Part shown: piece by piece, positions 43,055 to 53,620 of the stretch
How the letters are laid out: each line of letters starts with the position of its first letter
Position numbering within the stretch: position 1 is the first letter of the stretch
From: Burkholderiales bacterium PBB6
Lineage (GTDB): Bacteria; Pseudomonadota; Gammaproteobacteria; Burkholderiales; Burkholderiaceae_C
DNA: 64,000 nucleotides
Direction: 5' to 3'
Assembly (NCBI GenBank): GCA_002255925.1
Contig: NKIH01000002.1
Location: 248,001 to 312,000, forward strand
The notes under the pieces: generated by a model
Told to the model about the DNA's origin: nothing
Database searches by the model: none
Seen by the model: only the letters and a program-made list of their open reading frames with translations
Translations under genes and position numbers: made by a program

Positions 43055-45403
43055 TTGGAAAAGATCCTGCTGCAAATTGCCGCCGAACTGAAGGTTCGGC
43101 CGGCCCAAGTGACTGCCGCCGTGAACCTGCTGGATGGCGGCGCCACCGTGCCCTTCATCGCTCGTTACCGCAAGGAGGCCACCGACGGCCTCGACGACAT
43201 CCAGCTGCGTGAGCTTGAAAGCCGCCTGGGCTACCTGCGTGAGCTGGAAGACCGCCGCGCGGCCGTGCTCAAGAGCATTGATGAGCAAGGCAAGCTGACG
43301 CCCGAGCTGCGTCAGGCCATCGAGCTGGTGCCCACCAAGCAGGAGCTGGAAGACCTCTACCTGCCGTACAAGCCCAAGCGCCGCACCAAGGGCATGATCG
43401 CCCGCGAAGCCGGCCTGGAGCCGCTGGCCGACAAGCTGTTTGCCGACCCGCTGCTGGAGCCTGCTGCCGAAGCCGCGGCCTTCATCAACGCCGAGCTGGG
43501 CTTTGCCGATGCCTTCGCCGTGCTCGACGGCGTGCGCGACCTGCTGAGCGAGCGCTGGGCTGAAGACGCCGCGCTGGTCAAGACGCTGCGCGAATGGCTG
43601 TGGGCCGAGGGCCTGTTCAAGTCGAAGGTGATGGACGGCAAGGACGTCAACAACCCCGACGTGGCCAAGTTCCGCGATTATTTCGACTACGACGAACCGA
43701 TCCGCACCGTGCCCTCGCACCGGGCGCTGGCGGTGTTCCGTGGCCGCACCCAGGAATTCCTCGACGCCAAGCTGGTGCTGCCCGAAGAGGTGGTGCCGGG
43801 CCAGCCGACGCTGGCCGAAGGCCGCATCGCCACCCATCTGGGCTGGCGACATGGCAAGCGTGCGGGCGACGAGCTGATCCGCAAGACCATCGCCTGGACC
43901 TGGAAGGTCAAGCTGGCGCTGAGCCTGGAGCGCGATCTGTTCAGCCGCCTGCGCGAAGAGGCCGAGAAGGTCGCGATCAAGGTGTTCAGCGAAAACCTGC
44001 GCGACCTGCTGCTGGCCGCGCCGGCCGGCAAGCGCGTGGTGATGGGCCTGGACCCGGGCATTCGTACCGGCGTGAAGGTGGCGGTGGTGAGCGACACCGG
44101 CAAGGTGCTGGACACCCACACCGTGTACCCGCACGAGCCGCGCAAGGACTGGGAAGGCTCCATCCATGCGCTGGGCCGCCTGTGCGCCACGCATGGCGTG
44201 AACCTGATCGCCATCGGCAACGGCACGGCCAGCCGTGAAACCGACAAGCTGGCGGCCGACCTGATCAAGCGCATCCAGCAGTTGGCGCCTGACACGCACA
44301 TCGAGAAGGTCGTGGTCAGCGAAGCCGGCGCTTCGGTGTACTCGGCCTCCGAGTTCGCCTCGAAAGAGCTGCCGGACCTGGACGTGAGCCTGCGCGGTGC
44401 GGTGTCGATTGCCCGCCGCCTGCAAGACCCGCTGGCCGAGCTGGTGAAGATCGACCCGAAGAGCATCGGCGTGGGCCAGTACCAGCACGATGTGAACCAG
44501 AGCGAACTCGCCCGCACGCTGGACACCGTGGTGGAAGACTGCGTGAACTCGGTGGGCGTGGACCTGAACACCGCCTCGGCGCCGCTGCTGGCGCAGGTGT
44601 CGGGTTTGTCGTCGGCCGTGGCCAACAGCATCGTGCGCTGGCGTGAGGCCAATGGCCGCTTCCTGAATCGCAAGCAGCTGCTTGATGTGGCGGGCCTGGG
44701 TGCCAAGACCTTCGAGCAATCGGCCGGTTTCCTGCGCATTCGCGACGGCGACAACCCGCTGGATCTGTCGGGCGTGCACCCGGAAACCTACCCGGTGGTG
44801 GCCAAGATCGTCACCGCCGCTGGCCGGCCGGTGCATGAGCTGATCGGCAACTCGGATGTGCTGCGCAAGCTGCGCCCCGAGCTGCTGGCCGATGAGCGCT
44901 TTGGCGCCATCACCGTCAAAGACATCCTGGCCGAGCTGGAAAAGCCGGGCCGTGATCCGCGGCCGGACTTCAAGGTGGCGCGCTTCAACGACGGCGTCGA
45001 AGACATCAAGGACCTGACCGAAGGCATGGTGCTGGAAGGCACGGTGTCCAACGTGGCCCAGTTCGGCGCCTTCGTCGACCTGGGCGTGCACCAGGACGGC
45101 TTGGTGCATGTGAGCCAGCTCTCCAACAAGTTCGTCACCGATGCCCGCGAGGTCGTGAAGACCGGCGACATCGTCAAGGTGCGCGTGCTGGAGGTGGATC
45201 TGTCGCGCAAGCGCATTTCGCTGACCATGAAGCTCGATGCCGCGCCGGTGCCCAAGGGCGGCGCGCGGGGCGATAACAGCTACCGCCCACCCGCACGCGG
45301 TGAGCGCGGTGCCGGTGGCTACAGCGCGGGTGGCGCCAGCAACCGTGGCCAGGCTGACTCGCCCAGCGCCATGGCGGCCGCCTTCGCCAAGCTCAAGCGC
45401 TGA
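43055..45403 (+). CDS. tex: Tex-family S1 RNA-binding transcription accessory protein
   Basis: 782 residues with the Tex order: an N-terminal helical domain ([18 protein letters not shown]), a YqgF/RNase-H-like domain ([18 protein letters not shown], about 328-450), helix-hairpin-helix motifs (about 500-560, [15 protein letters not shown]) and a C-terminal S1 domain ([20 protein letters not shown], about 660-730). A basic Gly-rich tail follows. The start is TTG at 43055, giving [12 protein letters not shown], the conserved N-terminus; no ATG fits. Tex acts on nucleic acids in transcription and stress tolerance. Confidence 0.95.
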
Positions 45404-45420
45404 TCAGGGGCGGGCCAGCC

Positions 45421-46503
45421 ATGCGCGCGCCGCTCAAGGCCCTGCGGGTGCTGGCCGGGCCCATCGCCCGCGCCCACCTGCGTGAACGCGGCCTGCGCCC
45501 CGATGACGTGCGGGTCATCCCGGCGGCAGCCGGTGGCCCGAAGGGCTTGATCCTCAACCCGCTCGACCGCTTCCTGTTTGGCCAGTGGTTGCCGCGCGGC
45601 AACCACGAGGTGCACCTGATCGGCGCCTCCATCGGCAGCTGGCGCATGGCCGCCGCGTGTGCGGCCGATGCCGACCAGTCGCTGGCCGCGATGGCTGACG
45701 CCTACGTGCACCAGACCTACGACCACGCGCCCGGCCGTGCCCCGGAGGCGGCGCTCGTCAGCCGGGTGTTCCGCGAGACGCTGCAACAGCAGCTCGGCCA
45801 CCGTGCCGCTGAACTGCTGAGCCACCCGCGGCTGCGCCTGCATGTGGTGACCAGCCACGGCCGCGGGCTGCTGGGCCGGGAAGGGCGGCTGCGCACGCCG
45901 CTGGGCTACGGCCTGGCGTTTGCCGGCAACCTGCTGACCCGCGCCTCGCTGGGCCTGAGCCTGGAGCGCGTGGTGTTTTCCGACCCGCGCTCACCATTGC
46001 CGCTGCCGCTGGATGACTTCCGGAGCCTGCAGCGACCGCTGGATGCCCGCAACCTCGTCGACAGCGTGCTGGCGAGCTGCTCCATCCCGTTCTGGTTGAA
46101 GGCGGTGCACGACATCCCGGGCGGGCCAGCTGGCGCTTACTGGGACGGCGGCATCACCGACTACCACCTGCACTGGCCGTACCAGCGCATGACGCACGGC
46201 CTGGCCCTGTACCCGCATTTCCAGCACACGCTGGTGCCCGGCTGGCTCGACAAGGCCCTGTCGTGGCGGCACGGCAGCACGTCGGCGCTCGACCGCGTGG
46301 TGGTGCTGGCGCCGAAGTCAGAGTGGGTGGCTGGCCTGCCGGGTGCCAAGCTGCCTGACCGCGCCGACTTCCAGCAATACGGCGATGATGTGCCGGCCCG
46401 CATCCGGGCCTGGCAGGCGGCGATCGCGCAGAGCCAGCGCCTGGCCGACGAGTTCGCGCAGCTGGTTGAAAGCGGGCAGGGCATCGATGCCGAGCCGCTC
46501 TGA
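45421..46503 (+). CDS. patatin-like phospholipase family protein
   Basis: A 360-residue patatin-fold protein. The glycine-rich oxyanion loop reads AAAGGPKG (about 36-43), the nucleophile elbow GASIGSW (about 68-74) holds the Ser, and the dyad Asp is in WDGGITDYH (about 241). The order and spacing fit a catalytic Ser-Asp dyad, so an active lipid acyl hydrolase is plausible. No signal peptide is clear. It starts 17 bases after tex with GGGGCGGG upstream. The substrate is unknown. Confidence 0.87.
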   Translation: MRAPLKALRVLAGPIARAHLRERGLRPDDVRVIPAAAGGPKGLILNPLDRFLFGQWLPRGNHEVHLIGASIGSWRMAAACAADADQSLAAMADAYVHQTYDHAPGRAPEAALVSRVFRETLQQQLGHRAAELLSHPRLRLHVVTSHGRGLLGREGRLRTPLGYGLAFAGNLLTRASLGLSLERVVFSDPRSPLPLPLDDFRSLQRPLDARNLVDSVLASCSIPFWLKAVHDIPGGPAGAYWDGGITDYHLHWPYQRMTHGLALYPHFQHTLVPGWLDKALSWRHGSTSALDRVVVLAPKSEWVAGLPGAKLPDRADFQQYGDDVPARIRAWQAAIAQSQRLADEFAQLVESGQGIDAEPL

Positions 46504-46534
46504 CAGCGGCAAGCGCCAGCCCGGGCGATGCGGC

Positions 46535-46540
46535 TACAAT
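46535..46540 (+). promoter_or_regulatory. putative -10 box of the thrS operon
   Basis: TACAAT in the context GCGGCTACAATT, 31 bases after the patatin-like stop and 45 bases before the leader peptide. No good -35 box is seen at normal spacing. Transcription would begin near 46547. Confidence 0.5.
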
Positions 46541-46585
46541 TCCACCAACATCAACCGATCAAGAACGGGAAAGGCAGCACGGGTT

Positions 46586-46624
46586 ATGACACCGCGAACT
46601 TGGACCTTCGTCACTGAGGTTTAG
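46586..46624 (+). CDS. threonine-rich leader peptide of thrS (12 aa)
   Basis: ATG ACA CCG CGA ACT TGG ACC TTC GTC ACT GAG GTT TAG encodes MTPRTWTFVTEV. Four of twelve residues are threonine (codons ACA, ACT, ACC, ACT). It sits between a likely promoter and an intrinsic terminator, directly ahead of threonyl-tRNA synthetase. That is the arrangement of ribosome-mediated attenuation: slow Thr decoding would stall the ribosome and favour read-through. An AAAGG-like site lies about 12 bases upstream. The composition and location are seen directly; the control function is inferred. Confidence 0.75.
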   Translation: MTPRTWTFVTEV

Positions 46625-46629
46625 TCGGC

Positions 46630-46702
46630 CGCGGCTGGAATACACACGTCCCCTTCGTTCCTGTTCCCCAAGAAAGCGCGGCTGCCACAGCTGCGCTTTT
46701 TT
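46630..46702 (+). promoter_or_regulatory. thrS attenuator (terminator and possible antiterminator)
   Basis: Terminator: AAGCGCGGCTG (46674-46684), loop CCA, CAGCTGCGCTT (46688-46698), then a U-run to 46702. An exact second copy of the left arm core, CGCGGCTG, lies at 46630-46637, six bases after the leader stop. It could pair with CAGCTGCG of the right arm instead. A ribosome resting on the leader stop codon would cover this copy and let the terminator form; one stalled at a Thr codon would leave it free. Confidence 0.7.
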
Positions 46703-46720
46703 GTTTCTGGAGATTCCCAC

Positions 46721-48640
46721 ATGATCAAGATCACCTTGCCCGATGGCTCGCTGCGCGAGTTCCCCGCCCCTCTGACCGTCGCGGAAGTGGCCTCGTCCAT
46801 CGCGCCCAGCCTGGGCAAGGCTGCGCTGGGTGGCCGCATCGGGCGGGGTGAAACCTCCCGCGTGGTGGACACCAGCCACCTGATCGACAGCGATGAGTCG
46901 CTGGCCATCGTGACCGACAAGGACGCGGACGGCCTGGAGCTGATCCGCCACTCCACCGCCCACTTGCTGGCCTATGCGGTGAAGTCGCTGTTCCCGGAAG
47001 CCCAGGTCACCATCGGCCCGGTCATCGAGCACGGCTTCTATTACGACTTCGCCTACAAGCGTCCGTTCACGCCGGAAGACCTGGCGGCCATCGAGAAGAA
47101 GATGACCGAGCTGGCCAAGAAGGACGAGAAGGTGGTGCGCCGCGTGCTGCCGCGTGACGAAGCCGTGGCCCACTTCAAGCAGATGGGCGAGGCCTACAAG
47201 GCCGAGATCATCGGCAGCATCCCGGAAGGCCAGGATGTGTCGCTGTACAGCGAAGGCGCGTTTGAAGACCTGTGCCGCGGCCCGCACGTGCCCAGCACCG
47301 GCAAGCTCAAGCACTTCAAGTTGATGAAGGTGGCCGGCGCCTACTGGCGCGGCGACCACCGCAACGAGATGCTGCAGCGCATCTACGGCACCGCCTGGGC
47401 CAACAAGGAAGACCTGCAGCAGTACCTGACGATGCTGGAAGAGGCCGAGAAGCGCGACCACCGCCGCCTCGGCCGTGAGCTGGACCTGTTCCACATCGAC
47501 GAGCATTCGCCGGGCACGGTGTTCTGGCACCCGCGCGGCTGGACCGTGTGGCAGGGCGTGGAGCAGTACATGCGCCAGGTCTACCGCGACAACGGCTACC
47601 TTGAAGTCAAGGGCCCGCAGATCCTCGACCAGGGCCTGTGGGAGAAGACCGGCCACTGGGACAAGTACCGCGAAAACATGTTCGTGACCGAATCGGAAAA
47701 GCGCGACTACGCGCTCAAGCCGATGAACTGCCCCGGCCACATCCTGATCTTCAAGCAAGGCATCAAGAGCTACCGCGACCTGCCGCTGCGGTTCGGCGAG
47801 TTTGGCCAATGTCACCGCAATGAGCCGACCGGCGGCCTGCACGGCATCATGCGCGTGCGCGCCTTCACCCAGGACGACGGCCACATCTTCTGCACGGAAG
47901 AGCAGATCCAGTCCGAGGTGATCGCCTTCACGACCCTGCTGCAGAAGGTCTACAAGGATTTCGGCTTCACCGACATCATCTACAAGCTGTCGACCCGGCC
48001 GGAGAAGCGCATCGGCTCCGAGGAGAGCTGGGACCGTGCCGAGCAGGCGCTGGCGGAAGGCCTGCGCGCGTCGGGCTGCGACTTCGAGTACCTGCCGGGC
48101 GAGGGCGCCTTCTACGGCCCGAAGATCGAATACACGCTGAAGGATGCGCTGGGCCGCCCTTGGCAGTGCGGCACCATCCAGGTCGACCCGAACCTGCCGG
48201 AACGCCTGGACGCCGAGTACGTCGGCGAAGACGGCGCCCGCCATCGCCCCATCGTGCTGCACCGTGCCATCGTGGGCAGCCTGGAGCGTTTCATCGGCAT
48301 CCTGATCGAACAACACGCCGGTGCGCTGCCGATTTGGCTGGCTCCGCGGCAGGTGGTGGTGTCCTCGATCACCGATGCACAAGCCGATTACGTCACGGAT
48401 GTGGTGAAAGCTCTGCAAAAACAAGGGGTTAGGGCAGAGGCGGATTTGCGCAACGAGAAAATCACGTATAAAATCCGTGAGCATTCAATGCAGAAGGTCC
48501 CGTATATCCTTGTCGTTGGCGACAAGGAGAAGGCGAGCGGGGCCGTTGCGGTGCGCGCCCGAGGCAACCAGGATCTGGGCGTGATGTCACTTGCAGACTT
48601 CCAAGAGAAGCTCTCGAGCGACATTGCGAACAAGGTCTGA
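46721..48640 (+). CDS. thrS: threonine--tRNA ligase
   Basis: Class II synthetase charging tRNA-Thr, 639 residues. A TGS domain (about 1-62, [15 protein letters not shown]) is followed by the editing domain (about 63-225) with the SAD-type zinc/His region [14 protein letters not shown] and [13 protein letters not shown]. The catalytic core has motif 2 and zinc ligands [11 protein letters not shown] and [30 protein letters not shown] in part. The anticodon-binding domain lies at the C-terminus ([14 protein letters not shown]). GGAG lies 8 bases before the ATG. It heads the translation operon. Confidence 0.98.
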
Positions 48641-48723
48641 GTTACTGCCTCGGTTTTTTGCGTTCCATTGTTTTTGTGTTGGGTCTTCCTCTTGCCTGAA
48701 GACCTGTTTGAGGGGTTTGCACC

Positions 48724-49272
48724 ATCGCTACCTTTGCCGACCGTCGGATGCCCAATGTCGAGCGCAAGCATCGACTGAACCGCGAGATCACCGCCCTGAA
48801 CGTGCGCCTGAACGGCGTCGAGAACGAGCCCTTGGGCATCGTCAGCATTCAGGATGCCTTGCGCATGTCAGCCGAAGCCGACGTGGATCTGGTCGAAATT
48901 GCCGCCCAAGCGGATCCGCCGGTTTGCCGGCTGATGGACTACGGCAAGTTCAAGTACCAGGAGCAGAAGCGCGCTGCCGAGGCGAAGTCCAAGCAGAAGG
49001 TCATCGAAGTCAAGGAAGTCAAGTTCCGCCCGGGTACGGACGAAGGCGACTACCAGATCAAGATGCGCAATCTGCGTCGCTTCATCGCGGAAGACGGCGA
49101 CAAGGGCAAGGTCACGCTGCGCTTCCGGGGCCGCGAAATCACCCACCAGGACATCGGCATGCGTCTGCTTGAGCGGATCCGTGACGAGTTGTCTGACGTG
49201 GCACTGGTTGAGCACATGCCCAAGCTGGAAGGCCGTCAGATGATCATGGTGCTGGCCCCGAAGAAGAAGTAA
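48724..49272 (+). CDS. infC: translation initiation factor IF-3, probable ATC start
   Basis: Binds the 30S subunit and polices start-codon choice. The two domains are clear: N-terminal [23 protein letters not shown] and [20 protein letters not shown], then [20 protein letters not shown] and the ending [14 protein letters not shown] first in-frame ATG is at 48748, but it lacks a ribosome site. ATC at 48724 has GAGGGG eight bases upstream and gives 182 residues. Rare AUU/AUC starts are known for infC and allow IF-3 to repress itself. If the ATC is not used, the protein is 174 residues from 48748. Confidence 0.9.
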
Positions 49273-49291
49273 GCCAGTTCAAGCATTCACC

Positions 49292-49358
49292 CCGTGGCTC
49301 TCGGGCCACGGAGATGAAAAGGCCACTGCAGGCCATCAAGTGCAGCGCGCTCGCGCTG
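49292..49358 (+). promoter_or_regulatory. paired hairpins in the infC-rpmI leader
   Basis: CCGTGGC/GCCACGG (49292-49311) and CAGCGCG-CT-CGCGCTG (49343-49358) form two hairpins in the 120-base gap. E. coli L20 represses rpmI-rplT through structured RNA here, so an L20 operator is possible. The resemblance is positional only. AAAAGGAG follows just before rpmI. Confidence 0.4.
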
Positions 49359-49392
49359 CCGCCCAGCAGAGGTTCATTAAAAGGAGCATTAC

Positions 49393-49596
49393 ATGCCCAA
49401 GATGAAGACCAAGAGCAGCGCCAAGAAGCGCTTCCGTGTTCGCCCGGGTGGCACCGTCAAGCGCGGTCAAGCCTTCAAGCGTCACATCCTGACCAAGAAG
49501 ACCACCAAGAACAAGCGTCACCTGCGTGGCTCGGTGAATGTGCATGAGACCAACATGGGTCACATCGCACAAATGCTGCCGTTCGCCGGTCTGTAA
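49393..49596 (+). CDS. rpmI: 50S ribosomal protein L35
   Basis: 67 residues, strongly basic. The sequence [20 protein letters not shown] and the block [18 protein letters not shown] are those of bL35. The ATG follows AAAAGGAG. It sits between infC and rplT, the conserved order, with 27 bases to rplT. Confidence 0.98.
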
Positions 49597-49623
49597 TCCA
49601 CTTAGACAAAAAGGAGTTATCAC

Positions 49624-49980
49624 ATGCCTCGCGTCAAACGTGGTGTTACCGCCCGCGCTCGTCACAAGAAGATCCTGGCTCTGGCCAAGGGTTACCGCGG
49701 CCGCCGCAAGAATGTCTTCCGCATCGCCAAGCAGGCGGTGATGAAGGCAGGTCAATATGCCTACCGTGACCGTCGCGCCAAGAAGCGCGTGTTCCGTCAA
49801 CTGTGGATCGCCCGTATCAACGCTGGCGCCCGCAGCCTGGGCCTGACCTACAGCAAGTTCATGGCTGGTCTGAAGAAGGCCGCCATCGAGATCGACCGCA
49901 AGGTTCTGTCCGACATGGCCATCAACGATCCGGCAGCTTTTGCCAGCATCGTCGACAAGGTGAAGGCCCAACTCGCTTGA
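49624..49980 (+). CDS. rplT: 50S ribosomal protein L20
   Basis: 118 residues beginning [20 protein letters not shown], the conserved bL20 start, then [20 protein letters not shown] and the [19 protein letters not shown] block. L20 is needed early in 50S assembly and represses its own operon in E. coli. AAAAAGGAG precedes the ATG. A terminator-like hairpin stands between it and pheS. Confidence 0.98.
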
Positions 49981-50039
49981 TCTCCTTGAAGGCCAGGCAC
50001 TGACCGCTCGCGGAAGGTGCCAGGCCTGTCAGGCTCTCG

Positions 50040-50071
50040 AAGGCCGTCACCCTCTGGTGCGGCCTTTTTTG
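50040..50071 (+). terminator. terminator/attenuator between rplT and pheS
   Basis: AAGGCCG-T-CACC-CTCT-GGTG-CGGCCTT followed by TTTTT, 19 bases before pheS. An earlier hairpin (AGGCC-A-GGCAC with GTGCC-A-GGCCT, about 49989-50025) precedes it. The pair could set the ratio of ribosomal protein to PheRS mRNA. I found no Phe-rich leader peptide of the pheM kind in this gap. Confidence 0.85.
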
Positions 50072-50089
50072 TTTTCAGCACCGACTTTC

Positions 50090-51145
50090 ATGAACGATCT
50101 CGATCAACTGGTGGCCGCCGCCCAGGCCGACTTTGCCCGCGCCGCCACGCCAGCCGACCTTGAAAATGCCAAGGCACGCTACCTCGGCAAATCCGGTCAG
50201 GTGACCGATCTGCTCAAGGGCATGGCTGCGCTGTCGCCGGAAGAAAAGAAGACCCGCGGCGCCGAGATCAATCAGACCAAGCAGCGCGTTGAAGCGCTGC
50301 TGACCGAGCGCCGCGCCGCCCTGGCCGACGCCGAACTCCAGGCCCAGCTGAAGGCTGAAGCGCTGGACGTGACCCTGCCCGGTCGCAGCCGCAGCCAAGG
50401 CGGCCTGCACCCCGTGTCGCGCACCCTGGAGCGCATCGAAGCCATCTTCGGCTCGATGGGTTTTGATGTGGCGGACGGCCCCGAGATCGAGGAAGACTGG
50501 TTCAACTTCACGGCATTGAACACGCCCGCGGATCACCCGGCGCGCTCGATGCACGACACGTTCTACGTGGACACCAAGGCCCCGGACGGCTCTGGCCATT
50601 TGCTGCGCACCCACACCAGCCCGATGCAGGTGCGTTACGCGGTGCAGCACGTGAAAAAACACGCGGCTGCGCTGGCCGCCGGTGAGGCCATCCCAGAGAT
50701 CCGCGTCATTGCGCCGGGCCGCACTTACCGCGTGGACAGCGACGCCACGCACTCGCCGATGTTCCACCAGTGCGAAGGCCTGTGGATCGGCGAGAACGTC
50801 AGCTTCAAGGACCTGAAGGCGGTGTTCGCCGACTTCTTCCGCAACTTCTTCGAGACCGATGACCTGGACATCCGCTTCCGGCCGTCGTTCTTCCCGTTCA
50901 CCGAGCCGTCGGCCGAGGTGGACATCGCTTTTGCCAGTGGGCCGCTGAAGGGCCGCTGGCTGGAAGTGGCTGGCTCCGGCCAGGTGCATCCGAACGTCGT
51001 GCGCAACTTCGGCCTCGACCCGGAGCGCTACATCGGCTTTGCCTTCGGCATGGGCCCTGACCGCCTGACGATGCTGCGTTATGGCGTGAATGACCTGCGC
51101 TTGTTCTTTGATGGTGATCTGCGCTTCCTGAGCCAGTTCAAGTGA
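50090..51145 (+). CDS. pheS: phenylalanine--tRNA ligase alpha subunit
   Basis: The 351-residue catalytic alpha subunit of the (alpha-beta)2 class II enzyme. An N-terminal coiled coil (about 1-85) is followed by motif 1 around [19 protein letters not shown], motif 2 with [15 protein letters not shown], and motif 3 [18 protein letters not shown]. The ATG at 50090 ([12 protein letters not shown]) lies soon after the rplT terminator and lacks an obvious Shine-Dalgarno. pheT follows after 51 bases. Confidence 0.97.
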
Positions 51146-51196
51146 TCGCCGAGGCGATCCAGACACCCACCATTCGGAACACTTTCGGACTTCAAC

Positions 51197-53620
51197 ATGC
51201 AATTCCCTGAATCCTGGCTGCGCGAGTTCTGCAACCCTCCGCTGTCGACGGCCCAACTGGCCGACCTGCTGACCATGGCTGGCCTGGAAGTGGAGGAGAT
51301 GCGCCCGGTGGCGCCTGCCTTCACCCAGATCGTCGTGGCGGAAATCGTCGAGGCCGAGCAGCACCCGAATGCAGACCGCCTGCGCGTCTGCAAGGTTGAC
51401 GCCGGCCCCTTGAGCCAAGGCGGCCTGCTGCAGATCGTCTGCGGTGCACCGAACGCCCGTGTTGGCATCAAGGTGCCACTGGCGATGGTGGGCGCCGAGT
51501 TGCCCCCGGGCGACGATGGCCAGCCGTTCAAGATCAAGCTGGGCAAGCTGCGCGGCGTGGATAGCCAGGGCATGCTGTGCTCGGCGCGCGAGCTGAAGCT
51601 CAGCGAGGACCACGGCGGCCTGCTGGAGTTGCCGGCCGATGCGCCGCTGGGCACGTCGATCCGCGACTACCTGAACCTCGACGACACGCTGTTCACGCTG
51701 AAGCTCACGCCGAACCTGGCGCACTGCCTGAGCGTGAAGGGCATCGCCCGCGAGGTGTCGGCACTCACCGGCTCGCCCATGCTGCAGCCGGCCATTGCGG
51801 CCGTGGCTCAGCAGCATGGCGAAGTGCTGCCCGTGTCGATCCAGGACACCGACCTGTGCGGCCGTTTCAGCGGGCGTGTGGTGCGAGGCGTCAACCCCAA
51901 GGCGGTCACGCCTGCCTGGATGGTGGAGCGTCTGGCCCGTTGCGGCCAACGTGCGGTCAACCCGCTGGTGGACATTTCGAACTACGTGATGTTCGAGTTC
52001 GGCCGTCCTTCGCACATCTTCGACCTCGACAAGATCCACGGCGGCTTGCAGGTGCGCTGGGCGAAGGCCGGTGAAACGCTGAAGCTGCTGAATGGCAACA
52101 CGGTGTCGCTGGATGCCGAGGTGGGCGTGATCGCCGATGAGCAGGCGGTGGAATCGCTGGCCGGCATCATGGGCGGTGACGCCACGGCCGTGTCTGACGA
52201 CACCCGCAACATCTATGTTGAAGCGGCGTTCTGGTGGCCGCGTGCCGTGGCCGGCCGTTCGCGCCGCTACAACTTCTCGACCGACGCTGGCCACCGCTTC
52301 GAGCGTGGTGTGGATCCACAGAGCACGGTGGAGCACATCGAGCGCATCACCCAACTGGTGATCGACATCTGTGGCGGCGAAGCTGGTCCGATCGACGACC
52401 AGCAACCCGCGATGCCGGTGCGAACCCCCGTGGCCATGCGCATTGCACGCGCCGCCAAGGTCATCGGCATGCCGCTGATGCAAGCCGAATGCGAAGGCGT
52501 GTTCACCCGACTCGGTTTGCCCTTCGTGGCCACCGACGGTGTGCTGACGGTCACGCCACCGAGCTGGCGGTTTGACATCACGATCGAGGAAGACCTGATC
52601 GAGGAAGTGGCCCGCGTGCTGGGCTTTGCCCGCCTGCCCGCCACGCCGCCATTGGCCCCGGTCACCGCGCGCATTCGTCCGGAAGCACAGCGCAGCCGCT
52701 TCGCGGTGCGCCATGCCCTGGCCGCGCTCGATTACCAGGAAACCATCAACTTCAGCTTCGTCGAAGCCCGCTGGGAGCAAGAGCTTGCCGGCAACGCCGA
52801 CCCGATCAAGGTGCTGAACCCGATCGCCTCGCCTTTGGCCGTGATGCGTTCCAGCCTGCTGGGCAGCCTGGTGCAGGTGCTGAAGTACAACCTGGCCCGC
52901 AAGGCACCGCGCGTGCGCGTGTTCGAGATCGGCCGTGTCTTCTGGCGCGACGCTGCGATCAAGTCGAGCGACCACAGCGTGGAAGGCGTTTGCCAACCCA
53001 TGCGCGTGTCCGGTCTGGCCCATGGCTCGGCCGTGCCGCTGCAATGGTCGGCCGCCGACCGCGCCGTTGACTTCTTCGACGTGAAGGGCGACATCGAAGC
53101 GCTGTTGTCGCCGCGCAAGCCGGTCTTCGTGCCGGCTGAACATCCGGCCCTGCACCCGGGCCGCTGCGCAGCGGTGCAGCTCGACGGCGTGACGATTGGC
53201 CATGTGGGTGAGCTGCACCCGAAGTGGCGCCAGGGTTACGACCTGGCCCAGGCGCCGGTGCTGTTCGAGCTTGACCTGGATGTGGTGCAGCAGCAGCCCG
53301 TGCCGGAGGCGCAGTTGGTGTCGCGGCAGCAGTCGGTGCAGCGTGACCTCGCGCTGGTGGTGTCGGACCAGGTGGCGCACGATGCGCTGGTGGCCGCGCT
53401 CTCGGCAGATGCCGAAGGCCTGGTGCGCAGCGCCGTGCTGTTCGACATCTACAAGCCCAAGCAGGCCACCGCCGACCTCGCGGATGGCGAGCGCAGCCTG
53501 GCTGTGCGCCTGAGCCTGCTGGACGACGCCGCCACGCTGACCGACGACCGCATTGACGCGGCCGTGGCTGCCGCCGTGCAGCGCGTGCAGACGGCCTTTG
53601 GTGCGCGTCTGCGCGGGTAA
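51197..53620 (+). CDS. pheT: phenylalanine--tRNA ligase beta subunit
   Basis: An 807-residue beta subunit. It has an N-terminal tRNA-binding (EMAP/OB) domain ([20 protein letters not shown], about 45-150), B3/B4 editing domain (about 215-395 with [20 protein letters not shown] in part), B5 (about 405-480), a catalytic-like core, and a C-terminal ferredoxin-fold anticodon-binding domain ([13 protein letters not shown] to the end). Length and order are standard. ihfA begins 11 bases after its stop. Confidence 0.97.

What the first reader, a model, noticed from the sequence alone, without database searches (positions are those of the whole stretch)
46535..46720. Threonine leader peptide and attenuator in front of thrS
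A 12-residue open frame (46586-46624) with four Thr codons is followed by an intrinsic terminator (46674-46702) and then thrS. The terminator's left-arm core CGCGGCTG is repeated exactly six bases after the leader stop, which gives a simple switch: a stalled ribosome leaves the repeat free to compete with the terminator, a finishing ribosome covers it. In E. coli thrS is instead controlled by ThrRS binding its own mRNA. The logic would place IF-3, L35, L20 and PheRS under Thr-tRNA charging as well.
Basis: partly seen in the sequence, partly recalled or inferred. Interest (0 to 1): 0.75.

Follow-up and report, generated by a model that had tools for sequence, protein, structure and literature searches.

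The report
Threonine-sensing switch before thrS
A short threonine-containing peptide gene and a transcription terminator in front of the threonyl-tRNA synthetase gene look like a classical switch that turns the gene up when threonine runs short, and like switches stand before thrS in many related bacteria, where E. coli uses a quite different control.

Summary
In detail: a 12-codon frame MTPRTWTFVTEV* (46586-46624), then a 13-bp terminator hairpin with a U-run, then thrS. It is not chance. Of 179 distinct thrS upstream regions, 126 carry a like leader (92 of 145 without the 34 found through the leader motif) and 125 of the 126 a terminator before thrS, in 20 of 35 families examined. Leader tails after the fixed Thr codon are 21.6% Thr, against 1.9% and 3.4% in the other frames. 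The repeat is real, but the better supported strand is the overlapping CGGCCGCG (46626-46633), which can pair with the terminator's left arm (antiterminator -21.3, terminator -20.3 kcal/mol) or, shifted, with CCGCG in the leader. Both pairings co-vary between lineages (0 and 1 of 5000 permutations as good). So this looks like a classical ribosome-mediated attenuator. An E. coli-like ThrRS operator motif, in 13 of 29 other gammaproteobacteria, was in 0 of 196 records here. Known kind; no description found in nine paper searches, but a likely prior paper (Lopatovskaya 2010) could not be read. No experimental data.

The parts
46535..46540 (+). -10-like element TACAAT of the presumed promoter; no good -35 seen
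   Evidence: sequence; TANANT at like distance in 62 of 85 tRNA-less leader loci; no consensus promoter by the scan
46567..46574 (+). Shine-Dalgarno of the leader, GGGAAAGG
   Evidence: GAAAGGC at least 90% conserved in each column of 57 aligned relatives
46586..46624 (+). leader peptide ORF MTPRTWTFVTEV*
   Evidence: start and codons 2-4 nearly invariant in 57 relatives
46595..46600 (+). codon pair CGA-ACT (Arg-Thr); ACT is taken as the main sensing codon
   Evidence: CGA-ACT in 99 of 122 distinct leaders, where the calling rule asked for CG(A/G)-AC(T/G) or two hand-made patterns; under a rule that asked only for the residues PRT, CGA-ACT in 55 of 64
46592..46596 (+). segment 1 (CCGCG), pairs with segment 2 as protector 1:2
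   Evidence: folds; 1:2 co-variation, 1 of 5000 permutations as good
46626..46634 (+). segment 2 (CGGCCGCGG), pairs either with segment 1 or with segment 3
46677..46684 (+). segment 3 (CGCGGCTG), antiterminator partner of 46626-46633 and part of the terminator's left arm
   Evidence: antiterminator fold -21.3 kcal/mol with its inner hairpin; 2:3 co-variation, 0 of 5000 permutations as good
46672..46702 (+). intrinsic terminator (3:4, 13 bp, loop CCA) and U-run
   Evidence: a terminator follows in 125 of 126 distinct leader loci
46721..48640 (+). thrS, threonyl-tRNA synthetase
   Evidence: TIGR00418, E 1.2e-219
48748..53620 (+). infC, rpmI, rplT, pheS, pheT, presumed operon downstream
   Evidence: NCBIfam matches

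Best explanation
A classical ribosome-mediated transcription attenuator for thrS. RNA polymerase starts near 46547 and transcribes a 12-codon leader. With charged tRNA-Thr the ribosome runs to the stop codon and covers segment 2 (46626-46634), the terminator 3:4 forms and transcripts end near 46702. Without translation, segment 1 (CCGCG in codons 3-4) pairs with segment 2 and the terminator also forms. When charged tRNA-Thr is short the ribosome halts with ACT (codon 5, or ACA at codon 2) in the A site, covers segment 1 and leaves segment 2 free; segment 2 pairs with segment 3 before the terminator's right arm is made, and transcription runs on into thrS and probably the genes after it. Shown here by comparison: leader, Thr enrichment, terminator, co-variation of 1:2 and 2:3. 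Inferred: the start site, that the leader is translated, the ribosome positions, the direction and size of the response.
For: Leader in 126 of 179 distinct regions (92 of 145 without the 34 found or picked through the leader motif), terminator in 125 of the 126, in 20 of 35 families. Terminator score of 12 or more in 0 of 420 thrS-internal windows. Thr is 217 of 1003 tail residues against 1.9% and 3.4% in the other frames; under a leader rule that gives Thr no weight, 122 of 493. 2:3 and 1:2 pair better within a genome than between genomes (0 and 1 of 5000 permutations as good), 1:3 hardly (246 of 5000). Folding with a ribosome mask: left arm paired with segment 2 at 0.52 when stalled at Thr, 0.26 free, 0.18 at the stop; with shuffled post-stop sequence 0.48, 0.37, 0.33. 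The leader uses ACA and ACT, which are 0 and 2 of 90 Thr codons in thrS to pheT. All 30 loci fetched of 45 genomes hit by the motif model (one is the window itself) carry thrS beside the hit.
Against: No expression or 3'-end data. Leaders with one or two Thr exist (31 of 126; 5 of 16 in the own genus). 53 of 179 regions lack the leader; 38 of 58 leaderless records keep a terminator-like hairpin. The rule that called leaders asked for the Thr codon, and the choice among candidates gave Thr a small weight, so constancy of that codon is partly built in. The folding switch is clear (rise above 0.2) in 60 of 127 loci, against 147 of 635 controls. In the window the truncated RNA also lets the left arm pair with the region of segment 1 (0.72 free, 0.71 at the stop, 0.33 stalled), a pairing that the classical scheme does not need. 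Leader-only folding is not exceptional in the window (z -0.73; mean -1.53 over 35 loci, control -0.70). No good -35 was found.
Confidence: 0.85

Rival explanations
1. Feedback by ThrRS itself binding a tRNA-like element in the leader, as in E. coli.
For: The near-invariance of GTTATGACACCGCGAAC at nucleotide level in 57 relatives could reflect a protein site over the leader's start codon.
Against: The anticodon-like operator motif (GTA, then TCRCCACT, within 80 nt of thrS; read off and from recall of E. coli) is in 13 of 29 other gammaproteobacteria and in 0 of 138 leader and 0 of 58 leaderless records here. The first residues of the leader differ between families. A different ThrRS-bound element is not excluded.
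Confidence: 0.07
2. A translation-rate sensor not specific for threonine: the slow CGA codon and ribosome loading on the leader set read-through.
For: CGA, a rare codon, stands before the Thr codon in 108 of 122 leaders and in 61 of 64 under the residue-only rule; some leaders have one or two Thr.
Against: Strong Thr enrichment in the tails; CGA is replaced by CTG or CCG in 10 of 122 leaders while ACT stays (these were found by hand-made patterns that hold ACT).
Confidence: 0.1
3. One reading: the exact repeat 46630-46637 takes the terminator's right arm.
For: The repeat is real.
Against: It is a shorter and more distant helix than the terminator (by eye), and pairing with the left arm co-varies between lineages. 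Right-arm pairing was not tested on its own.
Confidence: 0.05
4. A constitutive promoter-proximal terminator with a chance ORF.
For: Some relatives keep terminator and promoter-like -10 without a leader.
Against: Leader rule met in 124 of 196 regions against 54 of 980 shuffles; Thr enrichment.
Confidence: 0.02

Closest known systems
uORFC-8-2 motif before cysS of Rhodobacterales (PMC8632094; passages and section 24 read)
   Same: aminoacyl-tRNA synthetase gene, short uORF with fixed cognate codons, terminator with U-run
   Different: cysteine and alphaproteobacteria; fixed codons usually at 14-15 there, the fixed Thr at position 4-8 (mostly 5) here
thrL before thrS in Streptomyces lividans TK24 (PMC8079986; passages read)
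   Same: Thr-containing leader peptide proposed before thrS
   Different: leader MKRVRPFLETTPGFVPAR on a leaderless transcript, no uridine-rich stretch; not like this one in sequence
E. coli thrABC leader (recalled; a Thr leader family in Rfam is recalled too)
   Same: Thr codons and attenuator
   Different: controls biosynthesis, not thrS; eight ACC codons (passage of PMC1183508); no Rfam match here
E. coli thrS operator bound by ThrRS (recalled)
   Same: same gene, feedback on ThrRS supply
   Different: translational, protein-bound tRNA mimic; its motif was not seen in the records here

Membership tests
Ribosome-mediated (classical) attenuator | short ORF with cognate codons between promoter and terminator | tested here: met
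   that it is translated is not shown
Ribosome-mediated (classical) attenuator | intrinsic terminator before the first gene | tested here: met
Ribosome-mediated (classical) attenuator | mutually exclusive 1:2, 2:3, 3:4 pairings | tested here: met
   but the switch in the folding model is clear in 60 of 127 loci only
Ribosome-mediated (classical) attenuator | read-through rises when the cognate amino acid is short | not testable with these tools
   no expression data
E. coli-type ThrRS operator | anticodon-like arm just before thrS | tested here: not met
   motif in 0 of 196 records, in 13 of 29 other gammaproteobacteria
RNA families of Rfam 15 (Thr leader, T-box and others) | covariance model match | tested here: not met
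   no match at E<=1 near the leader; one weak match elsewhere in 44000-53000

The most novel reading that the evidence does not exclude
A hard-wired codon-pair sensor. The rare pair CGA-ACU is found in leaders of 19 of the 20 leader families, also where the strand it pairs with seems to have changed (folds, by eye). A slow CGA step may hold the ribosome just before the ACU test codon so that the switch reads one tRNA-Thr isoacceptor with fixed timing. The attenuator may have arisen in betaproteobacteria from the terminator of the tRNA-Val(GAC) gene that precedes thrS in many beta- and other gammaproteobacteria, in place of the ThrRS-bound operator.
Probability: 0.2. Interest if true: 0.65.

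Novelty: new member of a known kind. Interest (0 to 1): 0.5.

Why it matters
thrS feedback in E. coli is a textbook case of a synthetase repressing its own translation. Here a neighbouring order keeps the same gene and gene order but seems to have another control, ribosome-mediated attenuation tied to tRNA charging, placed ahead of the IF3, L35, L20 and PheRS genes. It gives a large natural set (126 loci) for studying how attenuators arise, change their pairing and are lost, and a clear codon-level test.

Tried and rejected
Left arm with leader core (1:3) as the antiterminator: little co-variation (246 of 5000). The exact repeat as competitor for the right arm: set aside as the main switch, by argument and not by a separate test. 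Thr-richness as the defining feature: rejected, since 31 of 126 leaders have one or two Thr. A first leader rule (residues PRT near the start) gave 64 of 94 and missed other lineages. Thirteen calls by the wider rule were dropped because their codons were not CG(A/G)AC(T/G). L084 (terminator 166 nt after the leader call, probably chance) is in the counts but not. L098 and L103 were too short upstream. L018-L031 are weak hits to other synthetase-like proteins and were not used. Duplicated records were removed for the 179 count but are still in the 196 and 138 counts. Four one-mismatch motif hits lie on contigs other than the one with thrS (G173, G031, G181, G280) and are taken as chance. Of 45 genomes hit by the motif model I looked at the 30 loci returned; of 69 class-level genomes with thrS (of 75 searched) at the best-scoring 29 outside the order. 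After the self-check I added, the selection and circularity caveats, and lowered confidence from 0.87 to 0.85.

Full report
What is there. The leader core model finds one place in the window's genome. A -10-like TACAAT precedes the ORF by about 50 bases, at a distance that is conserved.

Relatives. thrS upstream regions came from 16 genomes of the genus, 80 loci of a named genome collection, motif and thrS searches in 300 genomes of the order and 60 fetched stretches. After removing duplicates there are 179 regions; 126 have a leader and 125 of these a terminator before thrS, the median gap from leader stop to terminator being 41 bases. This is not a prevalence: 34 of the 179 were found or picked through the leader motif; without them it is 92 of 145, and many of the fetched stretches were picked because they lacked the exact motif. 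In the named collection, searched by thrS alone, it is 51 of 77; in the genus 16 of 16. By family of the order-wide sample, 20 of 35 examined have it; 16 further families of that sample were not examined. Named examples are Acidovorax, Rhodoferax, Roseateles, Massilia and Noviherbaspirillum, and Ralstonia with a changed start MIQAPRTTT or MIRAPRTTT. The motif model hit 45 of 300 genomes; the 30 loci fetched, the window's among them, all have thrS next to the hit. The 17-base core with up to one mismatch hit 39 of 300, the reversed control pattern 3.

Leader. ATGACACCGCGAAC is nearly invariant at the nucleotide level in 57 aligned sequences, third positions included, although these were chosen by residues only. 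Across families the first residues change (MTPRT, MTPLT, MRPPT, MFRT, MSFRT, MPRT, MFKRT, MHART, MNILRT) and a Thr codon stays, ACT in 113 of 122 distinct leaders and ACG in 9; the calling rule asked for such a codon, so this constancy is partly built in. Tails are Thr-rich: 217 of 1003 residues, 96 of 122 tails with at least one Thr, and 122 of 493 under a rule that gives Thr no weight. In thrS-infC-rpmI-rplT-pheS-pheT of the window ACT is 2 and ACA 0 of 90 Thr codons, CGA 5 of 169 Arg codons; in thrS of 77 relatives ACT is 149 of 2192 and CGA 124 of 3112. So the leader uses codons that the genes avoid.

Switch. In the window 46626-46633 pairs with 46677-46684; with an inner hairpin this fold is -21.3 kcal/mol, the terminator alone -20.3. 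The same segment, shifted, pairs with CCGCG at 46592-46596. A ribosome with ACT5 in its A site would cover about 46581-46609 and hide segment 1; one at the stop would cover about 46605-46633 and hide segment 2 (footprint assumed, not measured). Examples of matched changes in 2:3: CGGCCGCG/CGCGGCTG here, GACCGCG/CGCGGTC in L041, CGCCGCGC/GCGCGGCG in L054, GTTCGCGC/GCGCGGAC in L032, CTAGTCG/CGGCTAG in L129, CGAGCC/GGCTCG in L239 (L041 by eye). On 52 representatives less than 68% alike, cognate 2:3 energies beat all 5000 permutations, 1:2 all but one, 1:3 4754 of 5000. Over 127 loci the 2:3 energy beat the shuffle mean in 115, 1:2 in 101, 1:3 in 84, while swaps with other genomes did as well in 39%, 37% and 53% of draws, since related loci share much of the sequence. 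Relatedness is reduced but not removed. Masked folding moves in the expected direction on average but not at every locus. Leader-only folding is moderately stable: mean z -1.53, below -1 in 19 of 35 loci, control -0.70.

Contrast. Of 29 thrS regions from gammaproteobacteria outside the order, the best-scoring of 69 with thrS, none meets the leader rule and 13 show the anticodon-like operator motif; no record of the order does, 0 of 196. The motif was written after seeing those regions. A tRNA-Val(GAC) gene lies upstream of thrS in 17 of the 29 and in 75 of 196 records here, so the terminator may once have been that tRNA's own; this is a guess.

Literature. Searches listed no account of a thrS leader attenuator in betaproteobacteria; only listings and passages were seen. 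Passages read: PMC2965389, PMC8632094, PMC4833913, PMC8079986, PMC1183508, PMC10272879. Lopatovskaya et al. [quoted passage not shown] Rfam has no match at the leader.

Downstream genes. infC, rpmI, rplT, pheS, pheT and ihfA follow on the same strand. Terminator-like hits in this stretch are near the chance level (9 against 7.0, sd 2.4, both strands). Internal promoters, known for infC in E. coli (recalled), were not testable beyond a consensus scan that found none, so common control by threonine is plausible but open.

Noticed in passing
L034, L036, L042, L056, L069, L070, L079, L085, last 120 bases before thrS: The leader is gone but a promoter-like TAAAAT (TAAAAA in L070) and a CGCGG..CCGCG terminator remain close together before thrS; how thrS is expressed there is unclear.
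   Followed up: partly
window 48724-48726: infC may start at an ATC codon in frame, 24 bases before the first ATG and after GAGGGG, which would fit a non-canonical start as in E. coli infC (recalled).
   Followed up: no
window 48637-48653: Weak 5-bp hairpin followed by six T at the end of thrS, before infC; may be chance.
   Followed up: no
e.g. L264, L271, L278, L284 (other gammaproteobacteria); L217, L226, L235 (this order), upstream of thrS: tRNA-Val(GAC) upstream of thrS on both sides of the beta/gamma divide (17 of 29 and 75 of 196 records), sometimes with a terminator after it.
   Followed up: partly
L250, about 130 bases before thrS: A variant leader MAFLKALTTNGRQGG (read by eye) without the Arg-Thr pair but with LTT, followed by a terminator-like hairpin; missed by the rule used for counts.
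   Followed up: no
L075, about 150 bases before thrS: A decaying copy of the leader in a Polaromonas metagenome assembly: core partly present, start codon read as ATA.
   Followed up: no
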